This document shows, piece after piece, positions 10,110 to 58,069 of a stretch of DNA of 64,000 nt (the first letter of the stretch is position 1; the number at the start of each line of letters is the position of its first letter). This stretch comes from Ascidia mentula (Eukaryota; Chordata; Ascidiacea; Phlebobranchia; Ascidiidae). The notes under the pieces are model-generated. The model ran no database searches. It worked only from the letters and a program-made list of their open reading frames with translations, and was not told the origin of the DNA. The position numbers and the translations under genes are program-made. Location: assembly GCA_947561715.1 (NCBI GenBank), contig OX387203.1, forward strand, positions 10,044,001 through 10,108,000, in the 5' to 3' direction.

Positions 10110-12524
10110 ATGGAAGGTAAGTACGTAGTTAATACATTGCAATGACACTATATACCATTAAATGGATAAGCACTTGTCTTTGGGTACGGTTTTCACAGTC
10201 TAAAAATTACCTTTTTGTGGCTTGTTGTTATTAACATGAAGGGCCAAGTTGGTTTTATGTGCCATATATACTGACTGCACGGCTGATTGTAACATAGAAG
10301 TGTATTGGTATGCGCAAAAAGCATATTGTTGAAGCATAAGACAAAATTCATCATAAGAGCAATTTGTATCAAACGTGCAATATCACTGTCATGTGGAGTT
10401 TTAAAATTAGACTTTTCTAACAAAAATTGCTGATTGAAAGATTAATATTTACACAGACGACTTAACAACCTTCAGTGCCTTATTGGATGGAGGCAACTCG
10501 ACATGGAGAAAAGTTACCCAGAAAGACGAATACATTCTGGAACATGACGTCACAAACATAACGGGTGACGCATTGTTAGATCGTCTCATTTTTCTGTCCG
10601 ACCACAAATGGCTGGGAAGGGATTGGCACAAGTTCATTGTTTCAGGAAGAATCTTCTTTGAAATTAAAGTCAATCCCATTCAGGATAAACTAACTCCTCT
10701 GGCTGAATTGTGGGAAGTCCAAGGAAAAAAGGTCAGAGAATGGAGAAAAGACTTCCGGAAGGTGTTAAACAGTTTCTTCGAATATTTTGGCAAGTTCCTT
10801 CGAGAGCCGATGTTAAACCATTTAAGGGTGAACGAAGCCAAAAACATGGCGGCCATTTCTTTGCTTTTCGAAATAGCCAGAATTCCTGGTGATATGCGCA
10901 CTGTAAACAGAAACGATGTCGCTAGAGCGATAAACGTTGGATTGTCAACAGTCAAGGTTGCTACGGACGACCTGGTCAACTTCTTCTCTAACGATGGCAA
11001 TGAGAAACTAAAATCATTCGTCAATATCATGAAGTATGGGTGAACAATCCTCAAATTTATTTCCTAATTAAATTTCACATCTTCAAACCTACATCAAAAT
11101 AGTAATAACTTATTGAGTAATCTGCATACAGATAGCCACTGTTTCTACCTATAATCAGTGCAACTGGTGTGACTATCAGACGACTTTGCTGACCAACGGA
11201 TGACGGTGATTGTATAGTCACCACAAAGTGGAAGTCTTTGCGTGGCCGTTTGCGAAGTCGTGTGATAGTCACACTAGCTTCACTGATGAGACCTTGTTGG
11301 TCGAAACATGCAGCTTACACAATTCATATTATTAGCTCCACTTTGATTAGTAATAACTTAGTTGCATAATATGGAATGTCACATCAAACAAAATGTGTTC
11401 TTATTTTTAAACAGGTTTGATAAACTTAAAGAACATGCAATTTAGGAATGCCCTTTTATGTACATGTTAGGCAATATATCCAAGATTTTTTTCAACAGTC
11501 GCAGCAACAAAACAGAATATCTAACTCAAATGATAATGCGTGGCAATCGACTCCCTCCAGAACCTTCGAACCCACAACCACTAACAAAGAGAAGGAAAAC
11601 AGCGGACAATACAGAGGTATGAGTTTTAAATATGTGTGGTTAGTATGTAGATATTCAAAACATACAGTAAAGCCCATGCAACTGCTAAGAAATTCACTTC
11701 TCAGATGTTTCGATTATAACTAGAATCATTCTCATTGTAAAACGCAGACGAGCGGACAAAATTTTGCGGTTAAGGAACAATAAAGAAAAAAGGGGGGGAA
11801 GGTAGAAAGAGCGCATAGTTTAGATAAGAGGCGGAACAGAGAATTTCCTAAGGTCGTGTGATAAAAACCAACATTGAGAATGGTTGCAGTTACAATGGAA
11901 ACGTCTGAAAAATGAGCATTTACATGGGCTTTACTGTTTGTCAAACCGTGAGTTAGGTTCCTAAACCATGAGATTTATAAAACCGTGAGCTATGTTCCTT
12001 TGTAAATATTAGTATTACCATAGTTTTAACGGATAAGTTAACCCAAAATCAATATCTTGCAAACTTCATTTGTGTGATTAAAAATGTGAAGAAGTTTCAT
12101 TAATTCACAGAAAGATCGAGCTCAACATTTTAGCACCAGCCATTGCCAGGAAAGTGCAACAATAAAAAAACAACCGAACTCGACAAAGAAAGAGTTTTCC
12201 GTAGCGACCACTTCATCAGAACGAAACGAAAACAAGGCTCATTTTGTGCCACCATCTGGCTTCAATCAAATACCAGAGGTTAATTACAAAACCACTGCTA
12301 CCGTGAAAAGGGGTCCTGGCCATGAGGCAAAAAGATCTTCAGCTGCTTTATTATTGGAGACAAAGCAAACTCCACCAAAACAAACAAAAGTCGATCCAGG
12401 TAATGTTTGTTCACCAACCAGCAATTCGAATCAAACATTTTCGACGAATCCACAAGGGAAGGATTTACCAGTACAAATTCCACCAAACCTGTTCCTTCAA
12501 TACATGCTGCAAACTAGAAAATGA
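10110..12524 (+). CDS. Family X protein X3, 371 aa, function unknown
   Basis: Four exons: 10110-10116 (ATGGAAG, donor GTAAGT), 10457-11033, 11499-11616 and 12111-12524 (TGA). The sum is 1116 nt with no stop. The first codons give Met-Glu-Asp by joining G to AC across intron 1. The conserved domain is in exon 2 (LEHDVTNITGDALLDRLIF, then LSDHKWLGRDWHKFIVSGR, WRKDFRKVL, and VNRNDVARAINVGLS). It is predicted soluble, mixed alpha/beta with an amphipathic helical second half; this is inference. Exon 3 carries LTKRRK, a candidate nuclear signal. Exon 4 is a low-complexity Lys/Ser/Thr/Pro tail ending LFLQYMLQTRK. X3 shares exon lengths and phases with X2 and lies in tandem with it, so the family grew by local duplication. 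Intron 2 contains a foldback element (11120-11345). Confidence 0.75.
11120..11345. repeat. Foldback element with decayed hammerhead motifs, in X3 intron 2
   Basis: The ends are inverted copies of a GTGACTATCAGACGACTT / AAGTCGTGTGATAGTCAC arm, flanked on the left by a minus-strand and on the right by a plus-strand hammerhead-like motif. The right motif (11283-11307) keeps CTGATGA, stem II GACC/GGTC and GAAAC but has lost stem III. The left motif keeps stem III and GAAAC but has lost part of the core and stem II. The interior (GGATGACGGTGATTGTATAG and a CACAAAGTGGAAGTC stretch) matches the arms of the larger element at 53.9-54.6 kb, so they are one family. Confidence 0.7.
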
Positions 12525-46450: not shown

Positions 46451-50468
<4,018 letters not shown>

Positions 50469-52930: not shown

Positions 52931-55900
52931 ATGTCTGGGTGCAGCAATACTACTAATTCAGAAAACGTGTTTAAATCAAAAAATCAAGGTAAGGGTGGTG
53001 GTTTTGTATGATAAACACTCCGCATTAAATGTTAAAGCATAAAAATGCAGCGTATTAGTTCAAAAAAGCGTAATTTGTTCGAGATCTTGATGCCACGAAA
53101 CTTAATTCAGAAACTGTTGATGGCATAAGTTCTTGCCGGAACGTTTTTTCAAACATGACAATGTTAACAACAAAATGGTCCAGTCATTTTATTCCTAAAA
53201 TTATGAGGAAACCTGTGAGTAGAGTTCCTAATTCAAAAAGTTTTTGGCATTGATAGCAATTCAGATCACCAAGATGAAAGAAATAGATGGCGAAATTGTG
53301 CCAGTGATTGACGAGAAAGCAATCGAGAAAGTTTTCGGACGGGATGATGTCTACAAATGCCCTGTAGCAATCTACTCCATTGCAGGAAGTTTAAGGAATG
53401 GAAAGTCTTTCTTTCTTAACTTGGTCACCAGATATTTGAAAAATAACAAGTTTGATGAGGTATTTCCGTTTATAAGTTCAACACTTAAAAATATCTATTT
53501 GCAACGGATTGAGTTTTATTCCAGACCGGATGTAAAACAAAAATAAATGCTTCGGGAAAACCAGAGTGGAGAGAATATTCCGAGGCAGTGATTAACGAAA
53601 GTTTTGAATGGCGTGGTGGCACCAAAAGGCATACAGAGGGTATATTGGTGTGGAGTGAACCTTTCTGGTTAAGCAGCGACAGATACGAAAAGGTAGTGTA
53701 CGCTGATAACAAATTTATAAAGAAAACTGTTTGCTGTTACATTTATTTGGTAAAAGCCGTGTTCCAGAAGAGCTTTATACGATTAGGAATAATAAACGTC
53801 AAGGCCTTAGGCCATTAAAACTTTCTTTCTTTTTTGCCAATTTGCTAGTGGTTATCACTGAAGTTGTTTTGTTTTTCGCTGTTGTACTTTCCATAAGAAG
53901 TGTCAATGTTTTAATATTGTAAGCAATGTGGAGCCAATAATATGAATTGTGTATAAGCTGCAGACAGATGGCCACTGTTTCGACCTAAAAGGTCTCATCA
54001 GTGCAGCTGGTGTGACTATAAGACGACTTTGCTGACCAAACGGCCAAGCAAAGACTTCCACTTTGTGGTGACTACACAGTCACCGTCATCCGTTGGGCAC
54101 CAAACTAGGTGCAACCTTACGGAGCAAACAAGGTGGAAACACTACGGCCAAGCAAGCTCAACCAATAGTGCCGTCAGGCCCCGTGTCACAATAATCATAT
54201 GATAAGCAATGTGGAGCCAATAATATGAACCAGCTGCACTGATGAGACCTTTTAGGTCGAAACAGTGGCCATCTGTCTGCAGCTTATACACAATTCATAT
54301 TATTGGCTCCACATTGCTTATCATATGATTATTGTGACACGGGGCCTGACGGCACTATTGGTTGAGCTTGCTTGGCCGTAGTGTTTCCACCTTGTTTGCT
54401 CCGTAAGGTTGCACCTAGTTTGGTGCCCAACGGATGACGGTGACTGTGTAGTCATCACAAAGTGGAAGTCTTTGCTTGGCCGTTTGGTCAGCAAAGTCGT
54501 CTTATAGTCACACCAGCTGCACTGATGAGACCTTTTAGGTCGAAACAGTGGCCATCTGTCTGCAGCTTATACACAGTTTTAATATTGGTTCAATTGGCTT
54601 ATTTAGTTAGAAATTTTGAAAAACATATCTTTACAAGCTAAATATTTGCAATAAAATCTGTTGTACAGATAGCTGTTTTTCTTATGGATACGCAAGGAGT
54701 TTTCGACAATATCAGTTCCAAGTTTTCATATTCTGTAATGTTTTGTTTGAGCGCCTTCCTCAGTTCCTACCAAATCTATAATCTTAAAGGAACAGTTAAT
54801 AGTGCGCATTTCGAGCACTTAAAGGTACGTAGCATCATGTTAACATTGTGTGGTGATGCTCCAATTTTCTCTCCTTGAAAGGTGTTTTCAGAGTATGGAG
54901 CAAATATATATGGAACGAAGTTGAGCGAAAGTTATCAGGCAGGCTTTTTTTTAAAGAGCTAAGAATTTTCAAAGAGTTAAGAAACATGTTAAAGCTTTTT
55001 GTTGAAATCTTTTGGATCATAATACAATAGGACCAAAATAATGTTGTCACTTTTCGAAAGATAATTGGCCACTTTTTTAGACCTTGCTTTTTCTCATGAG
55101 AGATTGGGGCAACGTCGATTATGAATTTGGTGTCAAAGACGGTCAAAAATATATTGATTCATTGTTTGCTCCAAGTGAAGAGAACTCAACAGAGTTTACA
55201 TCTTTGTGTCGAAACATTAAAAGTTCATTCAAGGAAGTTAAGTGTGCTCTGCTTCCACATCCTGGAAAAAAAATTGCACACCGAAAGGAAACAGACCGTT
55301 GTGCTGTAATCAAAGGTATCTTCAAAGTAGAGACCAATTTCTATTTTTCAAAACATATTTGAGGTGAAAGAATTGGTTTGTTGTTACCAAGTAATGTAGT
55401 GTTTCTATTTTAACGCTTAGAGTAACGCATAAAAAATAATCGGTAAACATTACTCACCAACAAAGTAGGCAAGACGTTTTAAAGTCCGGATGGCAAAATT
55501 CAAGAGCAACAAAGTTATTTAGACATTGACGAAGATTTTTTGGAAGCAATGGACCAACTTTTGGAAGAAATGTTTAAAAAAGTTGAAGTAAAAGAACTTG
55601 ATGAGTCAGCCATCACTGGAGAAAATATTATTCATCTCGCCATGAAGTTTTCGAACATGGTGGAAGAAAATAAGTTTGGAGCGGAAGCACTTATTGAGGT
55701 TTTGTTGTAATTTTTGATTTTCTAATTAAACTGTAAGACTTTTATCATTTTACATTAGGCCTTTTCATCAACTACTTTGGCGAGTCTCATTCAGCGATGT
55801 GAAAACCGTTTTTACACAGAAATGCAGGTATATAGATTTCATAGCGATTGCATGTAAATATATCTGGTTGTGTTATTTTATAGTCGGATTGTAATTTTCA

Positions 55901-58069
55901 CGACAATTTTTCAATAAATAACATAATAAAATGTAAGGTTTCGGCACCAAATCTTAACATATGAAAAACAAATAATGACAGCGGGTTTTATTGTTCAGAA
56001 ACATATATCGGTAGCAGATCACAAATATGTTTCTTCAAAAGAGAGATTGTTAGAAGTACACAACAAAGTTGTTTCACAAGCAATGCAGTATTTTGATGAA
56101 AGACACAATACTGGGTTGAATCCTATGATTTCGAAATGTAGAGGTGATTTGGAAGACAGCCTCGATAGAAAACGTCTGGTGATGACAAATCTAAACGAAG
56201 TAGCCGAGGTAATTTAATGATTTCGAAATTGTATCGTCAATATGTCGCATTCACATGTTTTCAAACTCATTTTCTTCCCCCAGGCAGGTATAAAGGAAGC
56301 ATATCGCTTATTGATGGAAGATTGCTTTGAGGGTTGTTTGGACGTCTTTTCGGTTCGTTGAAATTTATCAAAGTTACAACACTGCCTTTGACATTGCTAA
56401 ATCGATATTTTGTAGTGCCAATACAAAAACCATCTCAAGGAAAAGCAACTACCTACTGTTGAGCAACTTTCAGAAGATTTTATGAAAGTTTTGGATCAAG
56501 CAGTGGCCACATTTAATGAGATTGCAAACAAAAATGTACTCAATGAAAAGATGCAAAAGGAATCTTCTCTTGATCTCAAAGGAAAACTTGGTTTACTTTT
56601 GAAAGTTTTTACAGAAGATTTGGAAATAAAGCAGGTAATCCTACTGAAAAACCATGCACTTCACCGCATTTCCGATATGAACTTCACTCCAAAGGACTTG
56701 CCGAACCCAAGTGAAATATTATGGGTGTTATCTTCGTATAACCCCCCAAAAACATAAAAACAAAATATTTTAGCTTCGCATGTAGCTTTATTTTCGTGCA
56801 TAATGACGAATAAATTATTTAAGAAACGAATTTAAAGGTACTTAAATTCCTATGTCATTTCTTGTCAGTCCAAGGTGTTGCAAACGCTAACTAGCAATAT
56901 TGGTTCGAAAAAGCACTAAAAGTAAAAAACTATTTGGTCGAGACTCAAAACAGAGCCAAAAGAAATTGGGTCGGAAAGTGTCAGTTAATAACATGCTTAT
57001 GTTTTGTCGACGAATGGTTTACCAAAAATTTTAAAGCAGTATAATTTGCCTCAGGCTCTCGTAAACCTTAACGCTTGGAAATCAACAAACGATGCTTTTC
57101 AGATAATTCTGAACAAACATCCTTGGTTTTGGGTAAGTAATAGACTACAAGTAGATCTTTTAAATGGCTAATAGAGTTTTTGTACATTTGTTAGAATCTG
57201 TCACAGCTGGGGCATCCTGGTTTAACAATCCAAGAAACAAATGGAAAAATTTCGGTAAAAGCTTTTAAAACCTTTGTGTTTTCACTCAACTAAAACGTTT
57301 TCACAACATAAGTTGAACCGATTGGAAGTCATGTTCACCATTCCTGTCAAAGACCTAGAACATTTGGAAAATTCAATTAAATCCTTCATTAGTAAAGAGA
57401 GTGCGGGACCCTTGTCCAAAAGTTTTAAGGACGCTTTCACCCGCATACACGAAACAATTAAAGACTGGATGAAAACACAAGAAATGTATATCACAACACA
57501 AAAGGTATTGATTAAGTTAATTTATTGTTTTAAATTCTACTGTTCACTAATATGCGACAGAAATTCGACAAAGATAGGGCAGCACATCAAAGGAAGCTTG
57601 TTGCCAAAAAATATCACGATGACATGCGTTGGGTAACGAAAACCAATATCTTTGCACATCATGGTAAGCAGTTTGAGAAAGGTAATTTTTGTTTCAGATG
57701 CTAACTGGAAAGAAAGTTTCAAAGATTCACTTGGAATTGTTTTACAAAAAATGTGAAAACAGGATTCAGGCATTCACAATGGATTTGCCTCCAGAAATTG
57801 CTATGGAGGAAAGCAATTCGCTTAAAACGGAATTGGAAGCTGCTGTGGTTTTGTGGAGAGTCATCAACAACTTTCACAAATCTATTTATGTTCGTAGGCT
57901 TTGGAATATCGAGGTTTATTTTCAGGGCATTGGATCTTGGTTAAAATCTAAGTTTGTTGAAGCGAATGTACAAAAAATGCACCTCGCTACAAAACCGAAG
58001 GATTGGTCTCTCGATGTAATGATGGGTGATTACAAACCAAAATACAACAACTTAAAAAGTGTAGCCTAA
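52931..58069 (+). CDS. Atlastin/GBP-like large GTPase gene 3, about 822 aa
   Basis: Proposed exons: 52931-52988, 53257-53459, 53525-53692, 54669-54824, 54882-54938, 55081-55315, 55523-55698, 55759-55827, 55999-56208, 56284-56352, 56416-56634, 56895-56969, 57055-57132, 57195-57254, 57313-57504, 57561-57632, 57698-58069. All join in frame; the three at 56895-57254 are the least certain. G1 is GSLRNGKS (about 63-70), G3 is DTQG (about 150-153), and the atlastin-type G4 RDW is at about 221-223. FEWRGGTKRHTEGILVWSE and CALLPHPGKK are also atlastin-like. From about residue 270 the protein is helical to the end, far longer than the atlastin three-helix bundle, with no membrane hairpin and no CaaX box (end LKSVA). 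It is predicted to be a soluble dynamin-superfamily GTPase, with GTP-dependent dimerisation. The intron after 54938 has a GC donor. Intron 3 holds the hammerhead element. Confidence 0.75.
53956..54008 (-). ncRNA. Type I hammerhead ribozyme (minus strand, left arm)
   Basis: Read on the minus strand: stem I GCTGCA/TGCAGC (54002-54007 and 53957-53962), core CTGATGA (53995-54001), stem II GACC/GGTC with TTTTA loop, GAAA (53978-53981), stem III CAG/CTG, then TC as the cleavage site before TGCAGC. All conserved core positions are present. Confidence 0.75.
54232..54284 (+). ncRNA. Type I hammerhead ribozyme (plus strand, centre)
   Basis: Stem I AGCTGCA (54232-54238) pairs with TGCAGCT (54278-54284); core CTGATGA is 54239-54245; stem II is GACC/GGTC with loop TTTTA; GAAA is 54259-54262; stem III is CAG/CTG (54263-54265 and 54273-54275) with a 7-base loop; TC at 54276-54277 gives the GUC cleavage triplet. 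Predicted cut after 54277. All invariant residues of the family are present. Confidence 0.8.
54515..54567 (+). ncRNA. Type I hammerhead ribozyme (plus strand, right arm)
   Basis: Identical in all paired and core positions to the copy at 54232-54284. Core CTGATGA 54522-54528, GAAA 54542-54545, predicted cut after 54560, exactly 283 nt downstream of the other plus-strand cut. Two same-strand hammerheads at this spacing would excise a 283-nt RNA from a transcript. Confidence 0.8.

What the first reader, a model, noticed from the sequence alone, without database searches (positions are those of the whole stretch)
53921..54602. Retrozyme-like element with three complete hammerhead ribozymes inside a GTPase gene intron
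Two plus-strand hammerheads (cuts predicted after 54277 and 54560) and one minus-strand hammerhead (53956-54008) have every core residue, perfect stem I (GCTGCA/TGCAGC), stem II and a 3-bp stem III. Same-strand hammerheads 283 nt apart would release a 283-nt RNA with ends suited to circularisation. Known family: plant and metazoan retrozymes and Penelope-like elements use type I hammerheads. Inference: the inverted arrangement makes both strands ribozyme-bearing and creates a long hairpin in the pre-mRNA.
Basis: partly seen in the sequence, partly recalled or inferred. Interest (0 to 1): 0.88.

Follow-up and report, generated by a model that had tools for sequence, protein, structure and literature searches.

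The report
Hammerhead retrozyme inserted Penelope-style, head-to-head
This is one copy of a tiny ribozyme-bearing jumping gene whose insertion scars match those of Penelope-like retrotransposons in the same animal genome, which suggests how such 'retrozymes' enter chromosomes: one small RNA is copied from two neighbouring start points into the two sides of a DNA break.

Summary
The three hammerheads are real. It is a metazoan-type retrozyme: 283-285-nt units, dispersed over a 196-Mb animal genome (a 21-nt motif of the unit occurs 418 times).

The head-to-head layout is the rule. Of 40 best-scoring loci dissected, 36 have a usable TSD of 10-16 bp (22 exactly 12). In 31 of 36, one arm starts at unit position 12-19 (site A) and the opposite arm at 40-49 (site B); none is A/A or B/B, 4 have one arm, 1 is aberrant. 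Units agree across arms within a locus, and 46 of 68 arms exceed one unit (longest 5.9).

Penelope-like elements (PLEs) here show the same scars: in 11 of 12 head-to-head PLE insertions examined, a 12-14-bp TSD and a 27-44-nt tail on one side only. A purified PLE is published to cut both strands and to start at two adjacent internal RNA sites.

Best reading: PLE machinery copies one retrozyme RNA, probably circular, from both ends of a staggered break. PLEs were already suspected; this is genomic evidence. Cleavage, circularity and the enzyme are untested, and the exact partner PLE was not found.

The parts
53908..53919 (.). left target-site duplication GTTTTAATATTG (12 bp)
53920..54228 (-). 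minus arm, 309 nt; starts at unit position u44 (site B) at its outer end, runs one turn and stops at u19
   Evidence: ring alignment
53957..54007 (-). hammerhead on the minus strand; predicted cut between 53963 and 53962
54229..54575 (+). plus arm, 347 nt; starts at u15 (site A) at its outer end, runs one turn and stops at u236; joined head-to-head to the minus arm at 54228/54229 with 1 nt of ambiguity
   Evidence: ring alignment
54233..54283 (+). hammerhead +1; predicted cut after 54277
54278..54560 (+). full 283-nt unit between the two predicted plus-strand cuts
54516..54566 (+). hammerhead +2; predicted cut after 54560
54576..54587 (.). right target-site duplication GTTTTAATATTG (12 bp)
53304..53441 (+). 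GBP N-terminal domain stretch of the host gene, upstream
   Evidence: Pfam PF02263, residues 25-70 of window:53232-53546, 21.2 bits
53594..53674 (+). GBP N-terminal domain stretch of the host gene, upstream
   Evidence: Pfam PF02263, residues 28-54 of window:53513-53818, 20.9 bits, just under the cut-off 21.1
54681..54824 (+). GBP N-terminal domain stretch of the host gene, downstream of the insertion
   Evidence: Pfam PF02263, 39.1 bits
11100..11360 (.). older, degenerate copy of the same family: element 11113-11347 with 13-bp TSDs TAGTAATAACTTA at 11100-11112 and 11348-11360; left arm starts u16 (A), right arm u42 (B)

Best explanation
A non-autonomous metazoan retrozyme, mobilised by the Penelope-like (PLE) machinery of the same genome. 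Steps: (1) tandem copies are transcribed and cut by their hammerheads into ~284-nt monomers, which are ligated into circles (inferred; published for retrozymes of other animals). (2) A PLE reverse transcriptase/GIY-YIG endonuclease, perhaps a dimer, binds the RNA near a hairpin at u12-u60 (inferred). (3) It makes a break staggered by about 12 bp at an AT-rich site (stagger and base content read from the TSDs). (4) Each 3' end primes on the same RNA, one at site A (u12-19) and the other at site B (u40-49), with 1-3 nt of pairing (start points and microhomology observed; enzyme inferred). (5) Each polymerase copies past one unit length and lays down tandem units (arm lengths observed; circular template inferred). 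(6) The two cDNAs are joined through short microhomology into a head-to-head insertion (observed).
For: 36 of 40 loci have a usable TSD, 22 of 36 exactly 12 bp; 31 of 36 are two-armed with one A and one B start, 0 A/A, 0 B/B. In a second set of 16 loci chosen by me from the motif list outside those 40, 14 were analysed, 8 gave a TSD-bounded element, 6 of these are A/B, 1 is B-only, 1 is a spurious fit. Units: mean difference 0.71 across arms and 1.07 within an arm of one locus, 5.04 between loci; 0 of 2000 shuffles of plus arms among nine loci reach the observed cross-arm distance. Private variants cross arms in L042 (5 of 5 units) and L066. 46 of 68 arms exceed one unit, 15 exceed two. Primer-template microhomology 1.88 nt at A (34 arms) and 1.58 at B (33 arms) against 0.65 and 0.51 in shuffles. 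PLE insertions of the same genome: 11 of 12 with 12-14-bp TSD and a 27-44-nt tail on one arm only. Published: a purified PLE cuts and extends both strands, starts at two adjacent internal RNA sites, and the interval corresponds to the genomic tail (PMC11167929, parts 1-2 of 4 read).
Against: No enzyme, cleavage or circle was tested. The retrozyme start region is not similar in sequence to the tails of four PLE families (170-384 of 500 shuffles score as well), so the partner PLE is not identified. The purified PLE showed no difference in start site between top and bottom strands, so the strict one-A-one-B rule is not explained by that work. Linear multimers could replace circles as template. 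The 40 loci are the best-scoring of 2,068 first-look candidates and so favour young copies. The 12 PLE insertions were picked because their endonuclease or ribozyme matches lie in opposite orientation, so the share of head-to-head PLEs is not measured.
Confidence: 0.78

Rival explanations
1. The same PLE-driven copying from both ends of the break, but the template is an uncleaved linear multimeric transcript of an existing array, not a circle; the hammerheads are then not needed for insertion.
For: Source arrays exist: 27 of 40 loci have at least two hammerhead motifs on one strand. In the published PLE assay hammerhead mutants did not affect insertion and unprocessed RNA was the main substrate (PMC11167929). 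Homogeneous arrays would give homogeneous daughters.
Against: Arms of up to 5.9 units need long transcripts that stay uncut although intact hammerhead motifs are common (116 motifs of stem I plus core in 40 loci; stems II and III not checked). Circular RNA is the published major form in other animals.
Confidence: 0.15
2. Snap-back or self-priming: one strand is primed, the cDNA folds back and copies itself, giving a palindrome (the explanation proposed for inverted PLE structures in Adineta, on an antisense template; PMC3846280, passages).
For: The product is an inverted repeat.
Against: Self-copying predicts equal arms meeting at one ring position and the same outer end twice. Observed: arm lengths within 10% in 2 of 31 and differing 4.1-fold at the median; inner ends within 15 nt in 5 of 31 (3.4 expected by chance); outer ends always A and B in the 31.
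Confidence: 0.02
3. A foldback or MITE-like DNA transposon with terminal inverted repeats that happens to carry a hammerhead.
For: Inverted arms, TSDs, no ORF.
Against: The ends are not the same sequence (u12-19 on one side, u40-49 on the other) and vary by several bases; arm length and unit number vary from locus to locus.
Confidence: 0.01
4. LINE-type twin priming: a LINE enzyme, not a PLE, copies the retrozyme RNA from both nicks.
For: Twin priming by LINE-1 also inverts part of an insert (recalled); the 2020 retrozyme paper left LINEs open.
Against: Both starts are fixed and ~29 nt apart here, whereas in LINE twin priming the second start is arbitrary (recalled). TSD length and one-sided tail match the PLEs of this genome. 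LINE insertions of this genome were not examined.
Confidence: 0.03

Closest known systems
Metazoan non-LTR retrozymes (Cervera & de la Pena 2020, PMC7229834; parts 2-4 of 6 and a word search seen)
   Same: Small non-coding units with type I hammerheads, tandem copies, low GC, TSDs longer than 4 bp, co-resident PLEs, PLEs named a strong candidate for mobilisation.
   Different: Described as tandem repeats; the words 'inverted' and 'head-to-head' do not occur in the main text. Paired A/B starts, constant ~12-bp TSD and head-to-head insertion are added here. Figures and supplements were not seen.
Penelope-like elements (PLEs): PAc of Anolis (PMC11167929, parts 1-2 of 4 read) and Pen families of Adineta vaga (PMC3846280, passages)
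   Same: Cutting of both strands at AT-rich DNA and two adjacent internal start sites (PAc); inverted pLTRs, 31-bp tail optionally on one of them, 8-10-bp TSD (Adineta); minimal type I hammerheads.
   Different: PLEs encode reverse transcriptase and GIY-YIG endonuclease; the retrozyme has no ORF over 46 aa. The two start regions share no detectable sequence.
Plant LTR retrozymes (as described in PMC7229834 and PMC7761336, passages)
   Same: Non-autonomous hammerhead elements thought to move through circular RNA.
   Different: Type III hammerheads, LTRs with PBS and PPT, 4-bp TSDs.
Schistosoma mansoni W-elements with type I hammerheads (PMC8490949, passages)
   Same: Repeats with type I hammerheads; flanking duplications noted for one element.
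   Different: No systematic TSD and no head-to-head structure in the passages seen ('head-to-head' 0 occurrences).

Membership tests
metazoan non-LTR retrozyme | type I hammerhead with closed stem III in each unit | tested here: met
   core and all stems can form; but Rfam Hammerhead_1 20.8 bits is below its cut-off 34, and the MFE fold is an alternative by 1.4 kcal/mol
metazoan non-LTR retrozyme | small tandem repeat of 150-450 bp, multiple copies | tested here: met
   283-285-nt units, 176 matches in the 40 places scored, arrays of up to 5.9 units
metazoan non-LTR retrozyme | non-coding, GC below 50% | tested here: met
   unit GC 47%, longest ATG ORF on the ring 46 aa
metazoan non-LTR retrozyme | TSD longer than 4 bp | tested here: met
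   10-16 bp in 36 of 40 loci
metazoan non-LTR retrozyme | no LTR, PBS or PPT | not tested
   no dedicated search was run
metazoan non-LTR retrozyme | self-cleavage and circular RNA in vivo | not testable with these tools
   needs RNA
Penelope-like element | encodes reverse transcriptase plus GIY-YIG endonuclease | tested here: not met
   no ORF above 46 aa on the ring: not a PLE itself
PLE-type insertion product | optional ~30-bp tail on one of two inverted ends | tested here: met
   A and B starts ~29 nt apart, one per side, in 31 of 36 TSD-bounded loci; PLE tails 27-44 nt in 11 of 12
PLE-type insertion product | TSD length as in the PLEs of the same genome | tested here: met
   retrozyme 12-13 bp in 30 of 36; PLE 12-14 bp in 11 of 12
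PLE-type insertion product | start region shared in sequence with a resident PLE | tested here: not met
   four families compared, none above shuffles; other PLE families not tested
foldback/MITE DNA transposon | identical terminal sequence at both ends | tested here: not met
   A at one end, B at the other

The most novel reading that the evidence does not exclude
Bidirectional rolling-circle target-primed reverse transcription: both 3' ends of a staggered break prime on one circular RNA at two fixed, mutually exclusive sites ~29 nt apart, each presumably served by one protomer of a PLE dimer. The two polymerases follow each other round the circle and yield head-to-head concatemers. PLEs themselves would use the same route: the five-unit array of period 2,870 nt at C67 (two minus, three plus, 12-bp TSD) would be a rolling-circle product of a circular PLE RNA.
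Probability: 0.5. Interest if true: 0.85.

Novelty: new variant of a known kind. Interest (0 to 1): 0.72.

Why it matters
How animal retrozymes enter chromosomes, and with whose enzymes, has been conjecture (PLEs or LINEs; PMC7229834). Here the scars of many separate insertions give the start sites, the stagger, evidence for a single template sequence per insertion and the likely enzyme, all testable in a purified system that already exists for another PLE. The one-A-one-B rule also offers a simple reading of the inverted repeats and optional tails of PLEs, and a route by which a small circular RNA is written into DNA as tandem repeats.

Tried and rejected
Rfam at gathering threshold gave nothing. 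The E-value scan gave Hammerhead_3 matches in the wrong register and a mir-556 match that is only the inverted repeat. RF00163 over the whole genome found 0, but it rang in none of the 14 control genomes either, so that says nothing. Comparing the retrozyme start region with four PLE tails gave nothing above shuffles. The solved-structure search with the PLE ORF gave one chance match, E=0.43. Species: nine large scaffolds and 196 Mb resemble but do not equal the Clavelina lepadiformis assembly (passages of PMC10884593); left unidentified. The 8-times-asked genome-wide hammerhead pattern did not complete. B arms that stop where site A begins (L040, L046, window copy, L069) were noted but are too few to claim. 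Snap-back, DNA-transposon and LINE readings are under rivals.

Dropped rows. Of the 40 loci: L051 (internal repeat taken for a TSD; a complex three-arm locus), L055, L063 and L067 (no TSD found; L067 starts look like A and B). Of the 16 motif loci: L111 and L117 were left out; L106 fits poorly and its TSD is spurious; L105, L107, L108, L110, L115 and L119 gave no TSD-bounded element. L115, L116 and L117 have the same flank and look like copies of one insertion. Of the 12 PLE insertions, delta at C72:14.33M has no TSD of 8 bp or more; its one-sided tail is judged by eye from the printed ends.

Full report
What is there. The window carries, in an intron of a GBP-family GTPase gene (Pfam on two stretches before and one after it), an insertion at 53920-54575 bounded by the 12-bp duplication GTTTTAATATTG. 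It holds three complete type I hammerhead motifs, two on plus and one on minus (0 in 100 shuffles). No Rfam family reaches its gathering score in the window; HHR +1 alone scores 20.8 bits with Hammerhead_1, cut-off 34, with no non-standard pair in the alignment. The nearest-neighbour fold prefers another pairing by 1.4 kcal/mol. I rest the hammerhead call on the complete core and stems and on 116 motifs of stem I plus core in the 40 loci (stems II and III were not checked there), not on Rfam.

A dispersed family. The 283-nt unit matches 176 stretches in the 40 places scored out of 2,068 first-look candidates; the full units listed are 92-100% identical. An exact 21-nt motif of the unit (u17-37) occurs 418 times, its reversed control 0 times. 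I number the unit from the base after the predicted cut (u1). The window has an older copy at 11113-11347 with a 13-bp TSD.

Anatomy of insertions. Each of 40 loci was aligned to the unit as a ring. Thirty-six have a usable TSD: 22 of 12 bp, 8 of 13, 2 of 14, 1 of 15, 2 of 16, 1 of 10. In 31 of 36 the insert is head-to-head with one arm starting at u12-19 (site A) and the other at u40-49 (site B); none is A/A or B/B. If each side chose independently with equal odds the chance would be 2^-31. L033 (4 nt left on the other side), L049 and L064 are A only, L065 is B only, L039 has B and u266. A second set of 16 loci, picked by me from the first 100 listed motif places outside the 40, gave 8 TSD-bounded elements in 14 analysed: 6 A/B, 1 B-only (L113), 1 spurious (L106). 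The 11-kb window copy and L121 are also A/B on this ring. One insertion of another retrozyme family, in L097, shows the same plan by its own alignment, with a 12-bp TSD and a 26-nt tail on one arm only.

Arms and template. Forty-six of 68 arms exceed one unit, 15 exceed two, the longest is 1,678 nt. Full units of one locus differ by 1.07 positions on average within an arm and 0.71 across arms, units of different loci by 5.04. Shuffling plus arms among the nine loci with full units in both arms never reached the observed cross-arm distance (0 of 2000). This control does not separate private variants from subfamily markers; private variants cross arms in L042 (two variants in five of five units) and L066 (A37T; minus units, plus end). 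So both arms of an insertion derive from one template sequence, most simply one RNA molecule.

Priming and joining. At A the first TSD bases match the RNA beyond the start by 1.88 nt on average (shuffled 0.65), at B by 1.58 (0.51): the broken DNA end pairs briefly with the RNA. The TSDs are AT-rich. The arms are joined with 1.71 nt of microhomology on average (random 0.67). Inner ends cluster at u180-260 (39 of 68, 19.4 expected), next to and in the hammerhead. Snap-back of one cDNA is not supported: arm lengths agree within 10% in 2 of 31, inner ends within 15 nt in 5 of 31.

The PLEs of the same genome. A GIY-YIG search found 121 matches. The ORF of one array has RVT_1 and GIY-YIG; listed relatives of it carry RVT_1, some with GIY-YIG, in turtles, ticks, lancelets and others (120 of 1,415 hits listed). 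I examined 12 PLE insertions of four families (my names alpha to delta), picked because endonuclease or ribozyme matches lie in opposite orientation close together. In 11 of 12 one arm ends at a first site and the other runs on for a tail of 27-44 nt, with a TSD of 12-14 bp; the twelfth looks alike by eye but has no TSD of 8 bp or more. One is a five-unit array of period 2,870 nt, two minus and three plus. The retrozymes therefore carry the insertion signature of this genome's PLEs. Against a simple pairing: the start region is not similar in sequence to the four PLE tails, so the partner is open.

Fit to published work. Frangieh et al. 2024 (PMC11167929, parts 1-2 of 4 read, word search) report a purified PLE that cuts and extends both strands at AT-rich DNA, starts at two adjacent internal RNA sites, and link the interval to the genomic tail; they saw no difference in start site between strands, and 'circular' does not occur in the text. 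The Adineta paper (PMC3846280, passages) describes inverted pLTRs, a 31-bp tail on one of them, 8-10-bp TSDs, and proposes self-priming. The retrozyme papers (PMC7229834 parts 2-4 of 6; PMC7761336, passages) name PLEs as likely mobilisers without integration evidence in what I read. I found no description of head-to-head retrozyme insertions or paired start sites in retrozymes in the searches and 72 of an open-access library (titles and abstract starts, plus the papers named here); subscription papers, figures and supplements were not seen, and the 2014 paper on PLE hammerheads is not held.

Model. One RNA, probably circular, serves both 3' ends of a 12-bp staggered break, one at A and one at B. 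Observed: TSD, fixed paired starts, head-to-head arms, one template sequence, copying past one unit, microhomology. Inferred: PLE as enzyme (strong), circularity (moderate), a dimer with one protomer per site (weak to moderate). Not shown: ribozyme activity and expression.

What this copy does now. The whole insert folds as a hairpin of about 285 bp at -600 kcal/mol with hammerhead +1 in its loop and +2 paired with the antisense copy.

Noticed in passing
window 11100-11360: An older, degenerate copy of the same retrozyme with a 13-bp TSD and the same A/B start sites.
   Followed up: yes
L097 (G000:C72:15020120-15021600): One insertion of another retrozyme family (different unit, hammerhead with a longer stem III) with a 12-bp TSD and a 26-nt tail on one arm only.
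   Followed up: partly
L082-L086 (G000:C67:6132528-6148416): PLE array of five units with period 2,870 nt, two minus and three plus, 12-bp TSD: the same plan as the retrozymes at ten times the unit length.
   Followed up: partly
L089:499-729 and the matches: A retrozyme about 70% identical to this family in which the stretch between sites A and B is identical over 21 nt; dozens of further matches at 71-74% over the middle of the unit.
   Followed up: partly
unit positions u180-260 in the 40 loci: Inner ends of the arms cluster there (39 of 68, 19.4 expected), perhaps structural stops for the reverse transcriptase.
   Followed up: partly
L115, L116, L117 (G000:C2:9.697-9.735 Mb): Three copies of what looks like one insertion with the same flank: local duplication of host DNA after insertion.
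   Followed up: no
window 50097-50468 and 57686-58069: Two similar coding stretches suggest tandem GBP-like genes in the window; the second has no Pfam match on its own.
   Followed up: no
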